From NCBI RefSeq assembly GCF_040954645.1, contig NC_092809.1:135087914-135151913 (forward strand): a stretch of DNA of 64,000 bases, in the 5' to 3' direction. This DNA is from Diabrotica undecimpunctata. Lineage: Eukaryota > Arthropoda > Insecta > Coleoptera > Chrysomelidae. The translations under genes were made by a program, and so were the position numbers. Under the pieces are notes generated by a model. That model ran no database searches and had not been told where the DNA came from. It saw nothing but the letters and a program-made list of their open reading frames with translations. Positions 16,303 to 55,245 of this stretch are shown here, piece after piece. The stretch's first letter is position 1. Every line of letters begins with the position of its first letter.

Positions 16303-16474
16303 TGGGAACTTTGGGTCCGGTACAGATCAAGTTGCCATTGACTACGATCTGTGTAATTTTTGGAGGTATGTTTTGCCAGGATGGAAAATATACGTAATAC
16401 ACCAGTGGACGTCCGTTGGATATGTTAATAGCAGTAGCTTTTGGATTGATCACTTCTATTTTACCATTGTATCC
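16303..16474 (-). CDS. gd-like serine protease, coding exon 2 (core of GD_N domain)
   Basis: This exon is too short to stand out as an ORF. It is bounded by a TTTTTAG acceptor and a CCCA/GTAAGAGC donor. It enters in phase 0 and leaves in phase 1, giving 57 codons plus one base. The peptide carries GYNGKIEVINP, GRPLVYYVYFPSW, then TQIVVNGNLICTGPKVP. The last part is the hallmark 'NG..ICTGP' segment of gd N-terminal domains. It matches exon 1 in frame and domain order. The Tc1/mariner-like element of intron 1 begins about 230 bp upstream of the acceptor, yet the splice site looks untouched. Confidence 0.85.
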
Positions 16475-16700
16475 CTAAAAAGTGTTAATGTATTTATACT
16501 ATTTACATTTTAGTTAATATTAATAGAATAGAAGCTATAGAATCAAAATACCAATCATACGTGTGTTGGAAAAATCAAAAAACGATCTCGAATCTCCACA
16601 TCTTGTGGTTATTGGCATTAGAAATATTAAAATTGCGATACATTATGATACAAGTGTCGAATATATCAACATAAAAAGGAAAATCACAAATTTATACATA

Positions 16701-17003
16701 CAGTGTGTAAAAGCCAAATGGAATAAATTCATTATTTAGGTTACTGTACATATTTTTAAAAAATCCTAAAACACGTCAAATTTAAATTATAACTTGACAT
16801 TATTTAACGTGAAAATGCAACCCTTACCTTCAACCCCCTTAGAATGACAGGTACAATCCCCAATTTTTAAAATAGGAAGTATAGGCTTGTGATATATCGT
16901 TTGAAAGGTCTTTTCATTCTCCATTAAAAAATGTTGTCGCTTTCAAGTTTATTAAGATTAATTAAGGTAAAATAAATTAAAATCATGTGGTTACCGAAAT
17001 TCG
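16701..17003 (+). repeat. Left long terminal inverted repeat of the Tc1/mariner-like element
   Basis: Inverted partner of 18357-18659, with shared landmarks GTCAAATTTAAATTATAACT and CATGTGGTTACCGAAATTCG. The left arm has about 11 extra bases near its outer end, and the arms differ by scattered substitutions. Confidence 0.88.
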
Positions 17004-17078
17004 CTACAATACAATCAAAAACTAAAATGTAATGCAAAACGTAATAAAATGTAGAACACGAAAAAAAAACTATGAATG

Positions 17079-18160
17079 TTAATGAAGTAGATATTCAAAA
17101 TGTTCACCGCGAACGTCTTGGCAACATCCTAATCTCAAATAAAACTGTCTTCTAACATTATTTAACATAACAGCCGTGATCGACCTAATCTCAAGCGTTA
17201 TTCGTTCTTTTAAGTCATTTAAATCAGAAGGTTTAGTTTTGTACACATGGCTCTTCACATATCCCCATAAAAAGAAATCTAATAATGTAAGATCAGGTAA
17301 TCGCGCTGGCCATTCAATCGATCCTCGCCTCCCTATCCACCGATTGGGAAATATTGTATCGAGGTACTGCCGGACATTAAAATGGTAATGTGGTGGTGCT
17401 CCATCCTGCTGAAACCATATCGTATTCGCTGGAATTTGAGGGTTTCCTGGATCAGGATATATATTTGCCAACGTTGGAATGACATTATTTTGAGGTAGTG
17501 CCAAATAATTGTTGCCATTCAAGTTGCCCTCAATGAAAAAGGGACCAATGATATTGTTTCCTACAATCCCTGTCCAAACATTATTCTTTTGAGGGTATTG
17601 AGTGCGTTCTTCTCTCATCCAGTGAGGATTTTCCGTGGCCCAGTAGCGGCAATTTTGCCGATTAGCATGATCGTTAAGTGAAAAAGTACACTCATCAGAA
17701 AACATAACGTCTTCTAATTGGATAATATTGTTATCCAACGTGTCCATCATTTGCTCACAAAAAAAAGTTCTCCTATCAAAATCGTCTTCCATGAGCTACT
17801 GAGTAGGTATAATCTTATAGGGACGCAATTTATTTTCTTTTAATATGTTGTCGATGTATGGCTAGCATTGAATGTAGTGGATGCCTGTCTACTCGATGTA
17901 TGTGGATTTTTCTGAAACTTTAACAACACATCTAATTTGAGTTCATCACTCAGTGCATTGGCAGCTGCTTTTTTTATCTGCCTTACATGACCAGACTCGC
18001 GAAACTGCTTCTCTATTTTACTTATTGTTCCTTGGGATATAGACGGTAAATTAGGAAATTTCTAATGAAATAGGAGAGCTTCCTGTTGTGTATGGGTGTT
18101 ATCTCCGTAACCAATCATTTGTAAAACTGTTATTTTATGCATTTCCGTTAACCTAACCAT
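17079..18160 (-). pseudogene. IS630/Tc1/mariner transposase, broken
   Basis: The start MVRLTEMHKITVLQMIGYG opens a helix-turn-helix region (SISQGTISKIEKQF, SGHVRQIKK), followed by a stop and a frameshift near 17855. A 237-aa open frame then carries the DDE/D domain: MFSDECTFSLN (first Asp), WFQQDGAPPHYH (second Asp) and LPDLTLLDFFLWGYVKSHVY (third acid, Asp). The spacing from the second to the third Asp is about 36 residues. The usual S-P-D is L-P-D here. It is related to Tc3/mariner-like transposases with an aspartate as third acid. Stops make it inactive. Confidence 0.85.
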
Positions 18161-18356
18161 TTTTCAGAATTGAATTGAACGAACTTTTTATTTAAATTAA
18201 AATACTGACAACTTAAATAAAACAATTTACTAATGCGTGTTAAAATAACGTTGCCACGGAAATTATTTAAAGTTTTTTAATGGTTACCATCTAAAAACCA
18301 CATTGCTATGGTTTTTGTTCACTTTCTCATTATCAAGACCTAAACGGGAAATAAGT

Positions 18357-18656
18357 TTTGAGTATATTTTAGCGAATTTCGGTAACCACATGATTTTAAT
18401 TTATTTTATCTTAATTAATCTTAATGAACTTGAAAGCGACAACATTTTTGAATGGAGAATGAAAAGAACTTTCAAACGATATATCACAAGCCTATACTTT
18501 CTATTTTAAAAATTGGGGGTTGTACCCGTCATTCTAAGGGGTTGAAGGTAGGGGTTGCATTTTCACGTTAAAGAATGTCAAGTTATAATTTAAATTTGAC
18601 GTGTTTCGGGATTTTTTATAAATATATACAGTAACCTTCCATTTGGCTTTTACACA

Positions 18657-18659
<3 letters not shown>
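18357..18659 (-). repeat. Right long terminal inverted repeat of the Tc1/mariner-like element
   Basis: Inverted partner of 16701-17003. It ends GGCTTTTACACACTG before the flanking TA. Confidence 0.88.

Positions 18660-18711
<52 letters not shown>
18660..18711. repeat. (TA)n microsatellite at the transposon border
   Basis: About 25 TA units starting exactly at the TA target duplication of the Tc1/mariner-like element. Confidence 0.95.
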
Positions 18712-22384: not shown

Positions 22385-23800
22385 GCTACTACCGAGGAAC
22401 ATCAACGGGCAGAACAGGTCGTATTGGATTTTTAATCAACAAGAAATAGAAACGAAGAATAGTAGAAATAACTAGTATTTCGTATAAAGTACTATATTAA
22501 CCTTACAACTATAAAAGAAATACAATATACAAATTATAGAAATATGCGCCCAATGATTACTCACAATGACGAAGAAATAGATGAACTCTTTAGTAACGTA
22601 ACTAAAGCCTTAAATAACAATAAAAGTCACCTTAAGTATTTAATTGGTGATTTTAATGCCAATGTCAAAAAAAGAAACGGCAACGAGCAAGTCATGGAAA
22701 AGTATGGAATCGGCGAGAGAAATGAAAAGAGAGTAAGACTAGTCCAGTTTGCACACTACTAAAACATGCTTATTGCAAATACATTCTTTTAGAAAAAAAT
22801 CGAACAGAAAATGGATTAGGGTATCACCAAACTAAGAACGAATTTGACTTAATTTTAACCAACAAGATTACTACAATAAAAGATGTCAGTGTAATAAATA
22901 AATTGTACATAGGCAGCGACCATAGATCAATTACAGCAAAAATTGTTTTAGATCTGAATCTGGAAGGAATAAAATTGTTCACAAATCCAGCAGTTACCGG
23001 TATAAATATTACCAATCCAAAAAAAACTCATATCACTACCAAAGGACAATTATTGATGAATGATTACATGACCAAATCGACAGCTCTCCATTACTGGAAA
23101 TTACCCTTGATAGTATCAAAGAAATCGGAGGTCCGCAACAACAAAATGAACATAGTAAACTGTCTGATAAAACCAAAACAAAGAAGGAAAATTAAAGTAA
23201 GTAGCAACATACCGAGAGTACAATACACAGAATTTTGTAAAACAGGAAAAGTATAAAGGTAGACATAAGAAAATACGATGAAAGACTGATAGAAAACTCA
23301 ATCGAAAACAAAAAAAAAACAAAACAAAAAAAAGCATTAATTATTGGGGAGAAGCAAATAGTTGCTCTAACAAACGAAAACACCAGATTTACAGACAGAA
23401 ATGAAATAATACAACTCGTGAATAAATTATAATAATAACTAATACAATGAACTATACAAAGCCCCTGAAATACTTGAAGAAGCAATTAGTAACCAAGAAG
23501 ATGTAACAGAAGTCCGTTCGAAAGAAGTACAATCCATAATTACAAAAATTAAATGCAGTAAAGCAGCGGAAATGATGACATAACAGTGAAACTGTTTAAG
23601 TACGCTGACAAAAAACTGGAAAATCTTGCAAAAATGTAGAAAAATGCTGCATACTACTAAATGCATACTACCAATCATGATATACGTCTGCAAAACTTGG
23701 ACACAAAAGCAAAAGATAATAGCGAAAATAAAAGTTTAAAGGTCCATAAAGCGATGCATACTAGGTATAACAAAGAGATATCGAAAAAGAATATATAATC
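22385..23800 (+). pseudogene. RTE/BovB-like LINE (EN, linker, part of RT), 5' portion of a split copy
   Basis: Endonuclease pieces are KEIQYTNYRNMRP, LKYLIGDFNANVKKRNG, NEKRVRLVQFAHY and the catalytic GSDHRSITAKIVL. After the linker, APEILEEAISNQEDVTEVRS and KCSKAAENDDITVKLFKY appear. The frame then jumps, by internal deletion of the RT core, to LPIMIYVCKTWTQKQK and KRCILGITKRYRK. The element continues after the ribozyme-bearing insertion, at 24749. Confidence 0.8.
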
Positions 23801-23933
23801 AGAAAAAGACAGCAAAGATTTGATTTCACGTACAAAGCGTCCATGTATCTGTTAATACGTACTTACAGAGTAGATCCGAATAAAATGAAAAAGACAGCAA
23901 AGATTTGATTTCACGTACAAAGCGTCCATGTAT

Positions 23934-23975
23934 CTGTTGATACGTATTTCGACTTAATAAGTCTCATCAGAACAG
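23934..23975 (-). ncRNA. Type I hammerhead ribozyme, copy a (inverted)
   Basis: Same 42-nt ribozyme on the minus strand: CTGTT at 23975-23971, core, stem II, GAAA, loopless stem III and AACAG at 23938-23934. Cleavage is predicted after the base at 23939. It lies head-to-head with copy b, so a read-through transcript could fold back over more than 80 nt. Confidence 0.9.
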
Positions 23976-24053
23976 TTATTCATAGGCATTTTATTGTTGC
24001 TTCTTAAAAGACAGAAAAGATTTATTTTTCACGTTGAGAACGCCTATGAATAA

Positions 24054-24095
24054 CTGTTCTGATGAGACTTATTAAGTCGAAATACGTATCAACAG
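24054..24095 (+). ncRNA. Type I hammerhead ribozyme, copy b
   Basis: The conserved CTGATGA core is followed by stem II (GACTT-ATT-AAGTC, perfect 5 bp), then GAAA, then a loopless stem III (ATAC/GTAT) and the cleavage nucleotide C at 24090. Stem I pairs CTGTT (24054-24058) with AACAG (24091-24095), perfect 5 bp. All core nucleotides of the hammerhead consensus are present. A loopless 4-bp stem III matches the retroelement-type variants reported to act as dimers. Predicted cleavage is between 24090 and 24091. Confidence 0.9.
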
Positions 24096-24451
24096 ATACA
24101 TGGACGCTTTGTACGTGAAATCAAATCTTTGCTGGCTTTTTCATTTTAATCGGATCTACTCTGTATGAGTACAAGAAACAAATTCGTTAAGGATTTCTGC
24201 TTACTTGATAGACATGTCGTGGAATGCAAATTTTAGATTCTCCATGTCTCTATTAACATCTTTATCAACGTCTGTTATACCTTGCAATTTTAGAAGGTTC
24301 AGATTAAAGCAGAAATCTGAATTTGTTTCAAAACTATCTTACCGATTTTTCTATCAGATGTCGCTATTGCGTCCATAACGAAGCCATTTTATTGTTGCTT
24401 CTTAAAAGACAGAAAATATTTATTTTTCACGTTGAGAACGCCTATGAATAA

Positions 24452-24493
24452 CTGTTCTGATGAGACTTATTAAGTCGAAATACGTATCAACAG
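24452..24493 (+). ncRNA. Type I hammerhead ribozyme, copy c
   Basis: The 42 nt are identical to copy b, 398 bp downstream. Predicted cleavage is after C24488. With copy b it would release a 398-nt RNA (24091-24488). Confidence 0.9.
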
Positions 24494-24748
24494 ATACATA
24501 GACGCTTTGTACGTGAAATCAAATCTTTGCTGTCTTTTTCATTTTATTCGGATCTACTCTGTATGAGTACAAGATACAAATTCGTTAAGGATTTCTGCTT
24601 AGTTAATAGACATATCGTGGAATGCAAATTTTAGATTCCCCATGTCTCTATTAACATCTTTATCAACGTCTGTTATACCTTGCAATTTTAGAAGGTTCAG
24701 ATTAAAGCAGAAATCTGAATTTGTTTCGAAACTATCTTACCGATTGAT

Positions 24749-25060
24749 TATATAATCGATTACAGAAAACCAAAGTTACTACTGTAATCCACAGAATTAA
24801 ATCTTAAAAATTTCAGTAGGCAGGACATTTAGCGAGAAGAACTGAGAATAGATGGTCCACTAGAATAGCACTGTGATATCCAAGAGGCGTCAAGAGACCA
24901 AGAAGACTTCCAAATTGAAGATGAAATGACTATGACACAACGGACTTATGACATAAAGGAAAAAAGCCGGTACCACATGGCACAGAAAAGCAAATATAAG
25001 ACAATCGTGGGCAGAAATGAAGAACGGCTATGTATTACGCTGAGATTGATGGTAATGATT
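24749..25060 (+). pseudogene. RTE/BovB-like LINE, 3' portion of the split copy
   Basis: It resumes with the 9-bp duplicated target, then KTKVTTVIHRIK, QAGHLARRTENRWSTRI, YPRGVKRPRRLPN and GQKRTAMYY-like residues, the normal end of the BovB-like tail. It joins exactly to the part left of 23801. Confidence 0.75.
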
Positions 25061-25730: not shown

Positions 25731-25887
25731 ATATACGACTACCAATATCTAAAATGTCTAAGCCTCTATGTTGATCTATATTAAACGGTTATCAAAATTC
25801 TACAAAACACACGTAACTGTTTAAAAAGTTATTACAAAAATGCCAAACTTTTTTTCTTGACAAATATATAAAAAAAGTTGTTCTTAC

Positions 25888-26109
25888 CTGCACAGCATTT
25901 CCAATTGACATCTCTAGATTCAAAATAACCTTATTTGTACTAGTTGGGACTATAATCTGAATTTCTCCATACAAGCCGTTCTGATTGTCGTATTGGTAAC
26001 GAAATATAGACGGACAAGGACTTTCCACGTTTTGAGATCTGATTCCTAGGCTATTGAGTATTATCAGATAAGCTATTAAAAATAAAACTAATTCTGTTCG
26101 ATAAGTCAT
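25888..26109 (-). CDS. gd-like serine protease, coding exon 1 (signal peptide and start of GD_N domain)
   Basis: This exon encodes 74 residues. The start ATG sits in an ACAAAATGA context and is followed by a hydrophobic stretch (LVLFLIAYLIILNSLG) typical of a signal peptide, so the product should be secreted. After cleavage the sequence has VESPCPSIFRY and GLYGEIQI, which match the opening of GD_N domains (Ser-Pro-Cys-Pro, then a Tyr/Gly-rich strand). The exon ends GCTGTGCAG before GTAAGAAC, a strong donor in phase 0. The open frame reads past the donor for a short distance, but those residues lose family resemblance. Confidence 0.85.
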
Positions 26110-26199: not shown

Positions 26200-26439
26200 T
26201 ACAACAAAAAGCGTTGATGTGTGCCTTTGTTCAGACTTGGGGTAGTTTGAGGTAGAAGACGTGTTTAGCCTGAAACAAAAACAATTAATAAATAAATATA
26301 CCAACAAAAATGTTGCAATAATAAATATTAAGTGACTATGTGACAAATTCTACTTGATGGAGAGATAAGATAAATCATTATTATTTTAGTATATCTTCTT
26401 ATTGCCATGCTCATATAGTGCATTGGCGAATTTGCGAAT

Positions 26440-27465
26440 TATCTTAAGGCCAGACGTCTGTCTTTTGCGGCATGCAAACATTTTTGCCCTCTTGTGTACG
26501 TAAGAGGAGTCTACGGCGCCAAAAATTTCTTAATCAACAGCTTGTGGTCAACAGTATGGGGTTCTCAGTTTTTTAGACAAGCTATGCCACAAAACAGATT
26601 CAAGGATATTATAAAATATCTCAAATTTGACGTAAAGCAAACGAGATCTGATCCATTGAAAACCAACAAATTTGCTTTAGCCTCTGCGGTTTGGAATGGA
26701 TTTTTAGAAAATAGTAGTGCATGTTACAAACCGAGAATAAACCTCACCGTGGACGAACAACTACTCTATTTTAAAGCCAAGCGCCAGTTCACACAATACA
26801 TATGAAATAAGATGTATGGCCTGAAATTTTGGCGTTTGGCTTGCGTGAAATCAAAATATAAAGATACAGGTGTTGGTAAACACGTTCTTTTGCAGATAAT
26901 AGAAAATCAACTAGGAAAGGGCAAAAAGGTTACGCCAGATAAGTACTTCACATTGACAAAATTCACCAAGGCATTGCCAAAGAAATCAACAAGTCTTGTG
27001 GGTAGTTTGAATTGAAACAGAAAGGATGTTTCTCTAAGTGCAAAACGTGAAAATCGAGAATTGTATGTTATCCATATATTCCAAAGCGACGAAAATATGT
27101 CACTGCATACCAAGGTAAGAGTTACAAAAATGTGCTTTTGTTGAGCTCGTTGTATCAATCAGTGGATGTTGCTGTCGATGGAAAAAAACTTTCTGAAGCA
27201 GTAAGTTTTTATAATCAAACCAAATCTGAGGTTGATGTAGTGGACCAAATAACGTGTGTTTATTCTACAAAAGTTGCTTCAAGACGATGACTTATGTACA
27301 TATTTTATAATATTCTTGACTTAGAAGCCATAAATGCATGCATTATTTATAAAGAAGTAGGTTGAAAATATTTTGTAAAGGCAATTCTGTAACAAGGCGA
27401 TGTGTAATAAATGCCGAAAACTGCAAAGTGTATGGTGTTCCAAATGTTTAATGTTTAAACAATGA
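26440..27465 (+). pseudogene. piggyBac (PGBD-type) transposase, 5'-truncated and broken
   Basis: Open blocks show GVYGAKNFLINSLWSTVWG, RQAMPQNRFKDIIKYLKF, FALASAVWNGFLENSSACYK, INLTVDEQLLYFKAKRQFTQ, then YGLKFWRLACVKSKY, KKVTPDKYFTLTKFTKALPK and STSLVGSLN. Further frames keep VDVVDQITCVYSTK-like and FYNILDLEAINACI residues and end with a Cys-rich CNKCRKLQSVWCSKC motif, the C-terminal zinc-binding tail of these transposases. The catalytic Asp of TVDEQL survives. The N-terminal acidic region is missing. Confidence 0.88.
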
Positions 27466-28110: not shown

Positions 28111-29425
28111 TTACAAATCCAAATCAGACTCAGAAGATGAACTTTCAGAACCAAGATTTATAATAACTGGCTCGATCATTTTATCAGTAATATTGTCCAG
28201 CTTCCACATTTTTTTCTCTTCTTTAATAGTGTGATTTACTGCCTTTTCCCAGTTTTCAGGTTTTACATTATTTACGGCCTCCAAAAACAACTGTTTAACA
28301 TCATGAATTTTAGAGTGGTATTTTTTCTTGAAACTTTACTCTTTATCTGTGCCCATACCAGTTCAATCGGGTTTAATTCACAATGATATGGTGGGGATCT
28401 AAGTACTGTCATTCCACGATTTTTGGCAATTTCATCAATTTCGTATTTTTTAAATTTTTCTTTATGAAGGGCACACAACGAATAAAGTTCCGTTCTTATA
28501 GATCCGGGATGGTACGTAATATTTTTTGAACTCAGCCAATTCTGCAAGTCTTTTTTTAACCACTTGGTTGTGGGCAGTCCTTCTATAAGTCTGGAGTGAT
28601 AACTTGCATTATCCATTACTATTACACAGTTCTTAGAAAGAAGATCTATCATTTGTTCGAACCATTCTTGAAAGACATCAGCGTTCATGTCTTCATGGTA
28701 GTCACCGGTACGAGTTGATTCAAAAGTTAATAAACCACCTTCAACAAAACCGTCTGAACTGCCAATGTGTACTATTATCAGCCTGCGTCCCTTTCCTGAT
28801 GGTGGGTTTAAACCAGTAGATAAGTTATTTACAAAAGCGTGCCTTTGACTTGTAACAGTTTCATCCTGCCAAAATTTATTTGGTGTATGACCCTCGTTGA
28901 TCCATGTTTCATCAAGATAAAATATTTTTCTTTTTTGGTTTCTCATTTCCTTTATGGTTCTTAGAAAATGTCTTCTCCATATGACAATATCGCTTCTTTC
29001 TAATAAAATAGACTTTCTGGGATTCTTTTTCCAGCGGAAGCCTATTTCTTTTAAAAGTTTCCATAACCCTTATCATCTCGAACTGAGACAAGAACTTTAT
29101 CCAATGTTGGAAATTCTTGTCTAAAGAAGAATTAATGCACTTTCCGTCGAAGTCCTTCTTTAAAATGATATTCTATTTGAAATTTTGGTTTCCCTGGAGC
29201 ATTACGTGGCATTTGAAAACTACCACATTTCTCTTCTTTAATAACTCTGTAAATCGTAGATTTCCCAACACCAAGTGTACTGCTAACTAACTCAACGGTC
29301 TCATCAACACTTTCACATAAACGTTTGTCTGTAAATGATTTAAAACAATTAAATATTAATGTTTTTTCATTAACTGTTAGAGGACCAATTTTTCGGCGTT
29401 TACACGGCACTTCCAAATTTTCCAT
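28111..29425 (-). pseudogene. DDE_3-type (IS630-like) transposase, nearly intact with frameshifts
   Basis: The start MENLEVPCKRRKIGPLT leads to a helix-turn-helix segment (ETVELVSSTLGVGKSTIYRV). After a frameshift comes GFRWKKNPRKSILLERSDIV and then the 224-aa open catalytic part: KIFYLDETWINEG (Asp), NCVIVMDNASYHSRL (Asp) and PPYHCELNPIELVWAQIKSK (Glu). Another frameshift leads to the C-terminus VNNVKPENWEKAVNHTIKEE, ending in an acidic Ser-rich tail SESSSSESDLDL. The total of about 438 codons matches a full-length protein. The catalytic triad is intact. Confidence 0.85.
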
Positions 29426-42547: not shown

Positions 42548-43207
42548 AGTTATACTTCTATACGCGCGTTCGACTTTGGAAATTTCCACGGGAGTGAATC
42601 GGAAATTTATAAATTAAAACTCGTAAATATCTCAAGAAAGTTCAAATGTGTACTTATATACACAACAAACAACAATTAAATATTGTATTTGTTAATGTCA
42701 GATAAATTAACAGTTGTATCACCAAACAATATTTTTTTTATTAATATTTTTATCATGGTAAATTAAACATATGCGTAACTAAGTTACGTATATTGTCAAT
42801 TTTTAAATACTTATGTATATTGCATTTTAACTTGTATTGTATTATTATATTGAATTATCTTGCAGTGTATTGTATTGTATTTTTATTATAATAACAAAAT
42901 TAACAATGAATTTTACTGCAGAGTATGTGTAAAAAAAATTTTTGCATTCAAGTCCTTTTATACATATATGAAAATAAAAATATATATTTTCATTAAAATA
43001 TTGATTCAATCCTTCATTTACTTACTATACTCCTATTACAGGTCAAACGTTTATATACAGCAAACGATGCACCATATACCTGTATACCTAATTCTTTTTC
43101 GCTTGCTGCTCTCTCTTACCTATAGCATTACATATGTAATGATTGTGCAGATTGACTCCCATATAAATTTGTTACTACGAGCGCGTGTATAGAAGTATAA
43201 CTTCTAC
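42548..43207. mobile_element. Short inverted-repeat element inside piggyBac
   Basis: GAAGTTATACTTCTATACGC opens at 42548, and its inverted partner (GCGTGTATAGAAGTATAACTTC type) ends near 43192. It is followed by an 8-bp hairpin GGCAGTCC-CACC-GGACTGCC. A second, inverted partial copy lies at 54830-55245. The long apparent frame inside (42860-43192) recurs in that copy with frame breaks, so it is probably not coding. The insertion separates two piggyBac blocks. Confidence 0.6.
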
Positions 43208-43237
43208 CGGCAGTCCCACCGGACTGCCACACCCGTT

Positions 43238-44092
43238 TTATTTTTCATTTTCGGAAAGCATCATACCATCACTTCCTTTTCCACAATATATGTATCCATC
43301 ATAAAAATAATTACTTCTTGCATCAGTCATGCATAAAATCTTTATGCCATATTTAGATGCTTTTGCTAGCACGTACATTCTAAATTTACATCGACCTCTG
43401 AAAGCAACCAGCATCTCATCAATACACACAGAAGATACAAGAGTTAAGAGTTCTTGAGAATTTTCAACAAGCCTTTGAAACATGTCCAATACAGCAGCTG
43501 CTGTATTTTTAGTTTTTCGTTCATCTCAATCATCGGGGTTATCAAATCTCAAACAAGATAAGAGAAAAAGATAACGTTTCTGTGACATTGTGGCCCTAAA
43601 TTTATCTCGCCCTGTAGCATCTGTAGCAAAGAGACTCCTCTCGGTACGTTTATTATTTGATTTAAGAATTTTAGTGTATATCAAAAGTCCCAGAAAAGCG
43701 CGAATCTCTAAAGTAGTGGTTTCTTGAAGGTAGCTTGCTGAAGTTTTATTAGTATAATTTATTTTTTCGTAGTCTATTTGGACGTTGGTCCATTGGACGA
43801 TTTCTTTCGGATTGTTACAAGTATTTTTGCTTTCTGACGTAAACCAGGTAATTGCAAAATAATGTTATGCTTTCTTGTGCGGACGTTTTTAGGTGGTTGG
43901 TTCTTGCGCCGTTCAAATCCATTTTTTCCAACAAATGTTCCAGATGCAGGTATATCGTCTTCATTACCTATATCATTATCGGATTCGTCATTATCTGCTG
44001 ATTGTTCAGAGTCAGTAAAATGTTCACTCTCACTCACGTGATATATTTTAAATTTAAACCCGTCTGTCAGACGGAGTATACCAGTTAAGGGT
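43238..44092 (-). pseudogene. piggyBac transposase N-terminal and middle part, with terminus
   Basis: The minus-strand end reads TTAACCCTTAACTGGTATAC at 44096 downward, a typical piggyBac terminus with TTAA target site, followed by a GTCTGTCAGAC palindrome. The frame starts MSESEHFTDSEQSADNDESD, the usual acidic N-terminus, then FERRKNQPPKNVRTRKHNII. The block 43238-43489 has VCIDEMLVAFRGRCKFRMY (catalytic Asp) and YGIKILCMTDARSNYFYDGY. Frameshifts separate the blocks. The middle is continued at 41866-42035. Confidence 0.85.
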
Positions 44093-48300: not shown

Positions 48301-49530
48301 GTCGTACGGCCGTAACGTTCTCCTGGTGTTCAGGAGTTTCTGAACGTTCTACGACCGCCGCTCTCAAAGAGGATCTCAAGTTTCTAGAGTTCATCTCCGT
48401 TTCAAGGAGTTAATTTGGGATTCCGGCCTCTACGTATAAGAAGCTTCGCCGAGCCTCTGTAGTAGGTGAGGGGACACCGGTAATCAGAATTCTCTAACAG
48501 TTCGAGCTTTCTTACAGACAGTATTCTTACAATGACTTAATATTTGTGTTAGAATTCTGACGCGTGGTGTATGTCTCAAATTCCACAGACATGCCGGCCT
48601 TCTCACTTCGTGTAGCCGCGTTCCCTCTCATCAAGAGAGGCACGAGATTGCCGGTCGTATCGACTCCTCTTGCTGCCCGTCGCTTCGTGTTACTACCTTT
48701 CGCCAACAGTATTTCCTATAGTTACTATTTGCATTAGGTTTCTGGCGACGAAGCGCTATCGCAGCTCGACCTTGATCGGAATAGCAATTACAAGTCCCCG
48801 TCGGGGCATTTATTCGCTCTTTTCCGTGACAGGTCCCAAAGAACGCTGTGGTTAGTTCAACACAATTTAAAATAGTTCTAAGACCAATGTCTTTTCTATT
48901 TCAAAAGTCGTGTTCTACTGCCAGGGAGCGTTCGATACGCCGGTTCTCGTGCTCTTGTTGATTTAACTTCTAAATTGGATTAAGTCTTCTTGGACTTGAC
49001 GTCTTCGACGATAGTAGGATATTGGTTAAATAATAGAACTCAAAGTAGCGTGGTAGCACACCAGGCCAACAAGGTCTAGCGGGGCTAGTAGTATATGATG
49101 ACTGGATCCCGATCAAGTAAGCAAGCAATTTGATTAAACCCAGCCTGTGAGAAATGTTCACCCCTATTACGTTCGGGTGTAACAATTCATTGGAACGAGG
49201 TGTGTTAACTCGAGTAAAAACACGAGTCACCCCACCGCGCTCCAATGCTCCAGACCATCCCTTTTCCCCTATAGCACTCTGATGCGCGATAGGGGCACAA
49301 CTATCAGCCAAATGCTCTTCATGTGGAGGTCCTGGGTAATAGAACCCCAACAAGGTTTCCTAACCGAATGCAAAACTCAGGACAGCGCATTGTCGCTATA
49401 ATCCTGTTATCTTAATGTGGCTTATCCACGAACTAAAATTGCTTACTTGGGCCTTAAGTCTCCGCTGTAAGCCCCGGCTCAGTTCGGCGACTTGGTGCTA
49501 AAGGGGTTGGGTCTTAGGTGCCCAGGTTTT
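48301..49530. repeat. Unclassified GC-richer repeat
   Basis: About 1.2 kb with base composition clearly different from the surroundings, bounded on the left by the hAT fragment and on the right by T-rich sequence. A 290-bp part (49115-49400) recurs at 53627-53915. A minus-strand frame (48970-49353) reads GALERGGVTRVFTRVNTPRS, but I know no family for it. It is not recognisable as rRNA. Confidence 0.6.
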
Positions 49531-53612: not shown

Positions 53613-53626
53613 TCGTATATTAATTC

Positions 53627-53915
53627 AGCAAGCAATTTGATTAAACCCAGCCTGTGAGAAATGTTCACCCCTGAGAATTACGTTCAGGTGTAACAATTCA
53701 TTGGAGCGAGTTGTGTTAACTCGAGTAAAAACAGGAGTCACCCTACCGGGCTTCAATGCTCCAGACCATCCCTTTCCCCTCTATAGCACTCTGATGCGCG
53801 ATAGGGCACAACTATCAGCCAAATACTCTTCATGTGGAGGTCCTGGGTAATAGAACCTCAACATGGTTTCCTAGCCGAATGCAAAACTCAGGACAGCGCA
53901 TTGTCGCTATAAATA
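53627..53915. repeat. Second copy of the GC-richer repeat (partial)
   Basis: Same strand and order as 49115-49400: shared landmarks GTAACAATTCATTGGA, CACTCTGATGCGCGATAGGG and CTCTTCATGTGGAGGTCCTG. A few small indels interrupt the long frame of the first copy, arguing against conserved coding. Confidence 0.88.
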
Positions 53916-54829: not shown

Positions 54830-55245
54830 CTGGCAGTTCAGTGGGACTGCTGGTAGAAGTTGTACTTCTATACACGCGTTCGCCGTTACAAATTTATATG
54901 GGAGTCAATCTGCACAATCATTATATATGTAATGCTATAGGTAAGAAAGAGCAGAAAGAGAAACAGAATTAGGTATATAGGTATATGGTGCATCGTTTGC
55001 TGTATATAAACAACATTTGGCCTGCAATAGGAGTATATTAATTGAAGTATTAAATCAATATTTTGATGAAAATGTATATTTTTATTTTCATATATGTATG
55101 AAAAGAATTGAATGCAAAAAAAATTTTTTACACATACTCTGCAGTAAAATTCATTGTTTATTTTGTTATTAATATAAAATACAATACAATACACTGCAAC
55201 ATAACTCAATATAATAATACAATACAAATTAAAATGCAATATTCA
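54830..55245 (-). mobile_element. Second, partial copy of the short inverted-repeat element
   Basis: It carries GTAGAAGTTGTACTTCTATA, CAAATTTATATGGGAGTCAA and the whole block matching 42830-43207 in inverted orientation, including the hairpin next to the terminus. The opposite terminal repeat is missing. The long minus-strand frame here mirrors that of the first copy. Confidence 0.75.

What the first reader, a model, noticed from the sequence alone, without database searches (positions are those of the whole stretch)
23934..24493. Three intact type I hammerhead ribozymes with loopless stem III in an insect intron
Each 42-nt copy has the invariant CTGATGA, a perfect stem II hairpin, GAAA, a self-complementary ATAC/GTAT stem III, C at the cleavage site and a perfect 5-bp stem I (CTGTT/AACAG). 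All three copies keep every base, although the surrounding DNA is decaying. This variant is known from Penelope-like elements and animal retrozymes.
Basis: partly seen in the sequence, partly recalled or inferred. Interest (0 to 1): 0.92.

Follow-up and report, generated by a model that had tools for sequence, protein, structure and literature searches.

The report
Insect hammerhead retrozyme, inserted from both ends
A tiny non-coding jumping element with self-cutting RNA sits in what looks like an insect gene's intron, and its copies across the genome suggest that it is copied into DNA from both sides of the break, starting at two fixed spots of a rod-like RNA circle.

Summary
In detail: three identical 42-nt type I hammerheads lie at 24054-24095(+), 24452-24493(+) and 23934-23975(-). 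They belong to one 0.94-kb insertion (23802-24745) flanked by TATATAATC, inside a dead LINE, probably in an intron of a gd-like protease gene. It is a non-coding retrozyme: a 398-nt unit, about twice in direct orientation plus an inverted truncated part. The host genome (1.74 Gb) holds many dispersed copies and a second, 386-nt family whose hammerhead passes the Rfam cut-off and differs by compensatory changes.

New, as far as my searches reach, is the insertion anatomy. Copies are often head-to-head; both outer ends are then RNA 3' sides at two fixed unit sites, about +50 and +255 nt from the cleavage site. In 38 of 41 inverted insertions (listings) one end is at each site. Target duplications are mostly about 12 bp. 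In predicted circular folds of both families the two sites usually share one loop. I read this as reverse transcription primed by both nicked DNA strands on a circular or multimeric RNA, as shown in vitro for a Penelope-like enzyme. The enzyme here is not identified. Cleavage, circles and expression are untested.

The parts
23792..23800 (.). left target site duplication TATATAATC
23802..23990 (-). antisense arm: unit 55-188 (23859-23990) and unit 96-158 (23802-23864), outer end at site A
23934..23975 (-). antisense hammerhead copy
23985..23990 (.). head-to-head junction with 6-nt overlap of the two arms
23985..24382 (+). first direct 398-nt unit
24054..24095 (+). hammerhead 1; predicted cleavage 24090/24091
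   Evidence: cleavage site by family knowledge
24141..24150 (+). RT initiation site A (unit 157-166), inferred from where copies of the family end
24345..24354 (+). RT initiation site B (unit 361-370), inferred from where copies of the family end
24385..24745 (+). second direct unit, ending at site B (unit 363)
24452..24493 (+). hammerhead 2; predicted cleavage 24488/24489
   Evidence: cleavage site by family knowledge
24749..24757 (.). right target site duplication TATATAATC
23656..23778 (+). decayed LINE coding sequence left of the insertion
   Evidence: tblastn with a LINE frame of the same window
24763..24864 (+). continuation of the same LINE right of the insertion
25882..26022 (-). gd-like serine protease exon, GD_N profile positions 1-48 (27.3 bits, cut-off 29.6)
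16304..16483 (-). GD_N match, profile positions 45-104 (40.6 bits; one TAG inside); the element lies between the two matches

Best explanation
It is a genomic copy of a non-autonomous metazoan (non-LTR) retrozyme. Multi-unit transcripts are cut by the type I hammerheads into about 398-nt monomers and circularised (inferred from the known family; not tested here). The circle folds as a rod. A retrotransposon-encoded RT with an endonuclease, most likely Penelope-like, nicks both DNA strands about 12 nt apart and extends both 3' ends on the RNA. One end starts at site A (about +50 nt from the cleavage site) and the other at site B (about +255), which lie on opposite strands of one loop of the rod. 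Because the template is circular or multimeric, each cDNA can run through several units. The two cDNAs are then joined head to head. Shown from sequence: the head-to-head arms, the two fixed 3' ends, their pairing one of each per insertion, the target duplications, and the same anatomy in a second family. Predicted: the rod fold and the shared loop. Inferred: cleavage, circularity, the enzyme and the order of events.
For: Dispersed family: 178 matches from 40 scored of 1,819 first-look candidates. Second family: 138 matches, 40 scored of 2,204. Outer ends, family 1 (150 of 178 rows were listed and pasted): 40 clusters, 21 with both orientations, of which 19 are A+B, 1 A+A, 1 B+other. Family 2 (all 138 rows): 40 clusters, 20 with both orientations, of which 19 are P+Q, 1 Q+other. 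Finer alignment of fetched loci turns four family-1 clusters that look one-sided into A+B: the window, L018, L025 and L033. The rest have one 3' end: family 1, 11 A, 2 B, 2 other of 15 (after that correction; not every cluster was fetched); family 2, 11 Q, 8 P, 1 other of 20. Target duplication of at least 9 bp in 21 of 27 two-ended insertions, 12 bp commonest, against 1.9% for swapped flanks. Compensatory change between families in stems I and II. Circular folds z -4.4 and -4.7. Both end ranges share a loop in 24 of 30 and 10 of 15 copies, against 0.048 and 0.030 for rotated ranges. A purified Penelope-like protein cleaves and extends both strands with internal initiation (PMC11167929, main text). 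Penelope copies have inverted pLTRs, 8-10-bp duplications and an optional tail at one of the inverted ends (PMC3846280, passages).
Against: No RNA or activity data. The window hammerheads are below Rfam cut-offs. [quoted passage not shown] here the two ends differ, and a circle is only assumed. Local Penelope families end in other sequences and 9 of 10 printed loci run into (TA)n (by eye), so they are not shown to be the mobiliser. Six of 27 two-ended insertions lack a duplication of 9 bp, as do 7 of 7 one-sided family-1 elements and 15 of 20 one-sided family-2 loci. The loop result rests on predicted folds of related copies, fails in 6 of 30 and 5 of 15, and depends on how the sites are defined (3 of 24 and 8 of 12 with single points). 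The two double-sided covarying pairs are one family-to-family contrast; the number of such pairs is reached by 211 of 500 shuffles and that of further pair types by 500 of 500. In the window, unit 2 lacks a variant (unit 118) that the other three segments carry, which a single monomeric circle does not explain simply.
Confidence: 0.75

Rival explanations
1. The arrays are ordinary satellite DNA moved by DNA-level recombination; the inverted parts are later rearrangements.
For: Tandem 386-398-nt units; hammerhead satellites are known in animals (passages).
Against: Target duplications in 21 of 27 two-ended copies, one of each fixed end in 38 of 41 inverted copies, short dispersed arrays (at most about eight and a half units among the 80 clusters).
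Confidence: 0.05
2. The retrozyme RNA is copied by a LINE (not Penelope-like) enzyme with twin priming, the second site being chosen by microhomology.
For: Twin priming gives head-to-head products in LINEs (recalled); LINE-type RT frames abound in the window; the window copy sits in a LINE.
Against: LINE twin priming uses variable internal sites (recalled), here both sites are fixed; no poly(A) tail is evident at the ends (by eye).
Confidence: 0.25
3. The head-to-head form arises by self-priming (fold-back) of a cDNA on an antisense template, as the authors of PMC3846280 propose for Penelope copies, not by priming from both DNA ends.
For: Proposed there for head-to-head Penelope copies with palindromes at the junction (passages).
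Against: Fold-back predicts arms that are mirror images at the join. In 12 of the 14 family-1 joins readable the arms start more than 10 unit positions apart (L018 and L031 within 4; L012 left out as ambiguous), and the outer ends are two different sites.
Confidence: 0.08
4. The element is a short derivative of a local Penelope-like element, using its own terminal signals.
For: Shared hammerhead, GIY-YIG Penelope elements in the genome, two fetched copies (L089, L090) with antisense and sense hammerheads on either side of the frame.
Against: No sequence relation seen by eye between the Penelope ends and sites A/B; minimal hammerhead without stem III; 9 of 10 printed loci run into (TA)n.
Confidence: 0.15
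5. A non-autonomous DNA transposon with terminal inverted repeats.
For: Inverted arms and short duplications.
Against: Many one-sided, 5'-truncated and variable-length copies; the two ends lie at different unit sites.
Confidence: 0.03

Closest known systems
Metazoan non-LTR retrozymes with type I hammerheads (Cervera and de la Pena 2020, PMC7229834; abstract, sections 13, 14, 17 and passages read)
   Same: about 170-400-nt non-coding tandem units, type I hammerhead, low GC (about a third in the matched stretches), target duplications longer than 4 bp, predicted self-paired circle
   Different: the parts I read describe no head-to-head form and no fixed pair of 3' ends; the word 'inverted' does not occur in the main text
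Penelope-like elements (PMC3846280 passages; PMC11167929 main text)
   Same: head-to-head inverted copies, short target duplications, two alternative 3' ends (tail), internal RT initiation on both strands, hammerhead
   Different: they encode RT and, in canonical members, GIY-YIG; minimal hammerhead; the two starts there are 30-40 bp apart and used alike on both strands, here about 200 nt apart and one per end
Rfam Hammerhead_1 (RF00163)
   Same: core, stem arrangement and a loopless stem III in the model itself
   Different: the window copy scores 19.6 bits, under the cut-off of 34
RAGATH-1 hammerhead (RF03152)
   Same: core and stem I
   Different: 19.7-22.1 bits at the three copies against a cut-off of 56.3

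Membership tests
Type I hammerhead ribozyme | CUGANGA, GAAA, stems around the core, H at the cleavage site, stem I open | tested here: met
   the stem III of one molecule was taken as 2 bp without a partner
Type I hammerhead ribozyme | Rfam RF00163 score over the gathering cut-off | tested here: not met
   window copy 19.6 bits; related family 2 in the same genome 39.5-42 bits
Type I hammerhead ribozyme | self-cleavage in magnesium | not testable with these tools
   needs transcription in vitro
Metazoan non-LTR retrozyme | type I hammerhead in tandem units of about 150-450 bp | tested here: met
   398 and 386 nt
Metazoan non-LTR retrozyme | no protein-coding frame | tested here: met
   no stop-to-stop frame of 110 aa or more overlaps 23802-24745; shorter frames not examined
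Metazoan non-LTR retrozyme | no LTR, primer binding site or polypurine tract | not tested
   not searched for explicitly
Metazoan non-LTR retrozyme | dispersed, many copies, target duplications over 4 bp | tested here: met
Metazoan non-LTR retrozyme | accumulates as circular RNA | not testable with these tools
   no RNA data
Penelope-like element | encodes RT and (in canonical members) a GIY-YIG endonuclease | tested here: not met
   no frame of 110 aa or more in the element; such elements exist elsewhere in the genome
Penelope-like element | head-to-head inverted copies with short target duplication | tested here: met

The most novel reading that the evidence does not exclude
The retrozyme circle is a two-handed template: one internal loop of the rod presents two priming strands, so that both nicked DNA ends are extended on one RNA circle at once, giving head-to-head multimeric insertions. 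This would be the integration mechanism of animal retrozymes in general, and the loop would be the recognition signal that earlier work could not find.
Probability: 0.4. Interest if true: 0.82.

Novelty: new variant of a known kind. Interest (0 to 1): 0.62.

Why it matters
A review states that metazoan retrozymes show no conserved motif from which the mobilising retrotransposon could be deduced (PMC7761336, section 'A general Model'), and the 2020 paper leaves open whether the circle is DNA-primed or primed by a small RNA, naming Penelope-like elements as a strong candidate (PMC7229834, discussion). Two fixed, paired 3' ends in two families are genomic evidence for DNA priming at defined sites, and they give a concrete template for in vitro tests against Penelope-like and LINE proteins.

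Tried and rejected
Rejected: micro-RNA precursor matches, all under their cut-offs, which arise from the long inverted repeat. Rejected: selection inferred from intact copies. Tried: consensus folding of both families together recovers stem II, part of the distal arm and stem I, but not the proximal arm as a whole, because the alignment breaks there; family-wise arms pair better with themselves (-33.3 and -49.5 kcal/mol on average) than across families (-26.4 and -14.0). Loop test: a first version took the first 14 of 30 family-1 and 14 of 15 family-2 monomers; 14 of 14 shared a loop in family 1 and 2 of 2 in family 2, the other 12 lacking the exact motif. A second version with single points gave 3 of 24 in family 1 (6 dropped for want of the motif; background 0.064) and 8 of 12 in family 2 (3 dropped; background 0.055). 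I then used the observed range of ends on all 30 and 15. The result depends on that definition; the range was taken from the end data, with one outlying A end (unit 171) left out of it. Penelope origin of the end signal: no likeness seen by eye; not tested systematically. Host naming by a protein search gave nothing.

Stem III energetics: nearest-neighbour values give +0.1 kcal/mol for the 42-mer with a 2-bp stem III, -3.1 without stem III, -4.8 for its best (non-hammerhead) fold, and -15.7 for a double hammerhead against -18.7 for the best dimer fold; these ignore tertiary contacts and only say that dimers are plausible.

Full report
What is there. They belong to one insertion from 23802 to 24745: an antisense arm (unit 55-188 and unit 96-158), a 6-nt overlap, one full 398-nt unit and a second unit cut at position 363. 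TATATAATC flanks it at 23792-23800 and 24749-24757, with 1 and 3 extra nt at the ends. A LINE frame matches on both sides of the insertion (E 3e-6 left, 8e-6 right, 1.2e-9 together; stops inside). GD_N matches at 25882-26022 (27.3 bits, cut-off 29.6) and 16304-16483 (40.6 bits, one TAG inside), both on the minus strand and covering successive parts of the profile, make an intron likely.

The hammerhead. Rfam lists nothing over cut-off in the window; the short stretch scores 19.6 bits for RF00163. The main support comes from a second, homologous family, 63-66% alike over up to about 330 aligned columns, whose hammerhead scores up to 42 bits. On 10 + 10 monomers (chosen from the 30 + 15), 99.6% of 238 cells pair, and one pair each of stem I and stem II changes on both sides between families. 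Paired cells, cells with a double change and covariation score exceed all 500 shuffles; the number of pairs with a double change (211 of 500) and of further pair types (500 of 500) does not stand out. With two families this is a single contrast. Of 71 family-1 copies of the motif in fetched loci, 33 carry the dominant sequence over the 60 nt compared (a few copies near locus ends may be counted twice). Within families the motif is not clearly more conserved than the rest.

Anatomy of the families. Family 1: 178 matches, 40 of 1,819 candidates scored. From the 150 listed rows, 40 clusters result: 21 hold both orientations, and their outer ends are A+B in 19, A+A in 1, B+other in 1. Family 2: 138 rows, 40 clusters, 20 with both orientations, P+Q in 19 and Q+other in 1. 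Together 38 of 41; with independent ends at even odds that has a probability near 5e-9 (hand arithmetic). Short pieces missing from the listing make some clusters look one-sided: finer alignment shows A+B for four of them (the window, L018, L025, L033). Site A is unit 157-166 (one end at 171) and B unit 361-370, about +51 to +60 and +255 to +264 from the cleavage site (unit 106/107); in family 2 Q is about +50 to +56 and P +250 to +261 (as used). The positions relative to the ribozyme are thus kept although the sequences differ. One-sided copies have one 3' end, mostly at a fixed site (13 of 15 in family 1 after the correction, 19 of 20 in family 2), and a variable 5' end. At 14 readable head-to-head joins of family 1, the arms overlap by 1-6 nt in 8 and are separated by 1-38 nt in 6; in 12 of 14 the arms start more than 10 unit positions apart, so the joins are mostly not palindromes (read; L012 left out as ambiguous).

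Target duplications of 9 bp or more occur in 21 of 27 two-ended insertions (15 family 1, 12 family 2), 12 bp being commonest (9 of 27); swapped flanks give 1.9%. Two of the 21 lie in TA repeats, where the duplication is ambiguous. One-sided copies show them less: 0 of 7 in family 1 reach 7 bp, 5 of 20 in family 2 reach 9 bp.

Template. Units within one insertion differ less than units of different insertions: 2.0% (same orientation) and 3.1% (opposite arms) against 3.8% in family 1; 3.1% and 2.9% against 3.8% in family 2 (23 and 32 loci). Most variants are private to one unit (302 of 365 and 302 of 327), as expected from decay after insertion; of the variants at sites covered by both arms, 20 of 210 and 6 of 124 are shared by both. 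This fits one template RNA per insertion but does not prove a monomeric circle, and the window's own units differ at unit 118. cDNAs cross the cleavage site repeatedly (up to about eight units, C8:47931753), so the template was circular or multimeric.

Fold. Circular minimum-energy folds of one unit each are -93.9 (family 1) and -107.7 kcal/mol (family 2), z -4.4 and -4.7 against 60 shuffles each. The ranges of the two ends share at least 3 unpaired nt in one loop in 24 of 30 and 10 of 15 genomic monomers; the same two ranges rotated round the circle do so at 0.048 and 0.030. Other definitions gave 3 of 24 and 8 of 12, and 14 of 14 and 2 of 2 (part of the copies). The copies are related, so this is two observations rather than 45.

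Enzyme. A Penelope-like protein from Anolis cleaves and extends both strands in vitro, starting internally; but its start sites do not differ between strands, and unprocessed RNA is its main substrate (PMC11167929, main text). Penelope insertions in a rotifer have inverted pLTRs, 8-10-bp duplications and an optional 31-bp tail at one inverted end; the authors favour self-priming for the head-to-head form (PMC3846280, passages). The host holds such elements: 73 GIY-YIG matches (150 of 6,686 candidates scored), a 605-codon stop-to-stop frame with an RT-like FVDD motif (by eye) and GIY-YIG (L089), and minimal hammerheads. But in 9 of 10 printed loci the end runs into (TA)n, and the end sequences do not resemble A or B (by eye). 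I therefore hold 'Penelope-like' as the leading guess (about 0.6) and not as a result.

This locus. A transcript of the whole insertion is predicted to pair all 42 nt of hammerhead 1 with the antisense copy.

Literature. Searches for 'twin priming' with 'retrozyme' or 'Penelope-like', retrozyme with target duplication terms, Penelope with head-to-head and duplication terms and a wider one listed no paper that, from titles, abstract starts and term counts, describes paired fixed ends in retrozymes. In one search no listed paper holds both 'twin priming' and 'retrozyme'. Most subscription papers are not held; the one on Penelope hammerheads cleaving as dimers (title in the reference list) is not held and was not read. 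Papers seen: PMC7229834 (abstract, sections 13, 14, 17, passages), PMC7761336 (passages, section 9), PMC11167929 (passages, main text), PMC3846280, PMC6155905 and PMC8490949 (passages). The odds are as first written, except that the self-priming rival was added on re-reading.

Noticed in passing
L089, L090; also L071, L075, L077, L082, L084, L086, L087: Penelope-like elements with minimal hammerheads; sense and antisense hammerheads flank the frame in L089 and L090; 9 of 10 printed loci (not L076) run into (TA)n at the 3' end (by eye).
   Followed up: partly
family 2: Among 16 one-sided copies with a readable 5' end (4 query-boundary ones left out), 6 end at sense 331-361, just downstream of the hammerhead cleavage site; none of the family-1 one-sided ends read lies at the matching place.
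   Followed up: no
window 23864-23990 with 24039-24165: A 127-bp, 98% complementary inverted repeat that would form a long hairpin RNA; it draws sub-threshold micro-RNA family matches.
   Followed up: partly
window 42814-43229 / 54831-55245; 49112-49401 / 53619-53912; 16690-17020 / 18356-18670: Three repeat pairs of about 290-420 bp at 89-93% identity, unidentified.
   Followed up: no
window 28272-29069(-), 17079-17795(-), 26419-26805(+), 43526-43864(-): Frames of DNA transposons: DDE_3 by Pfam for the first; the second has no Pfam match and looks mariner-like, the last two look piggyBac-like, by eye only.
   Followed up: no
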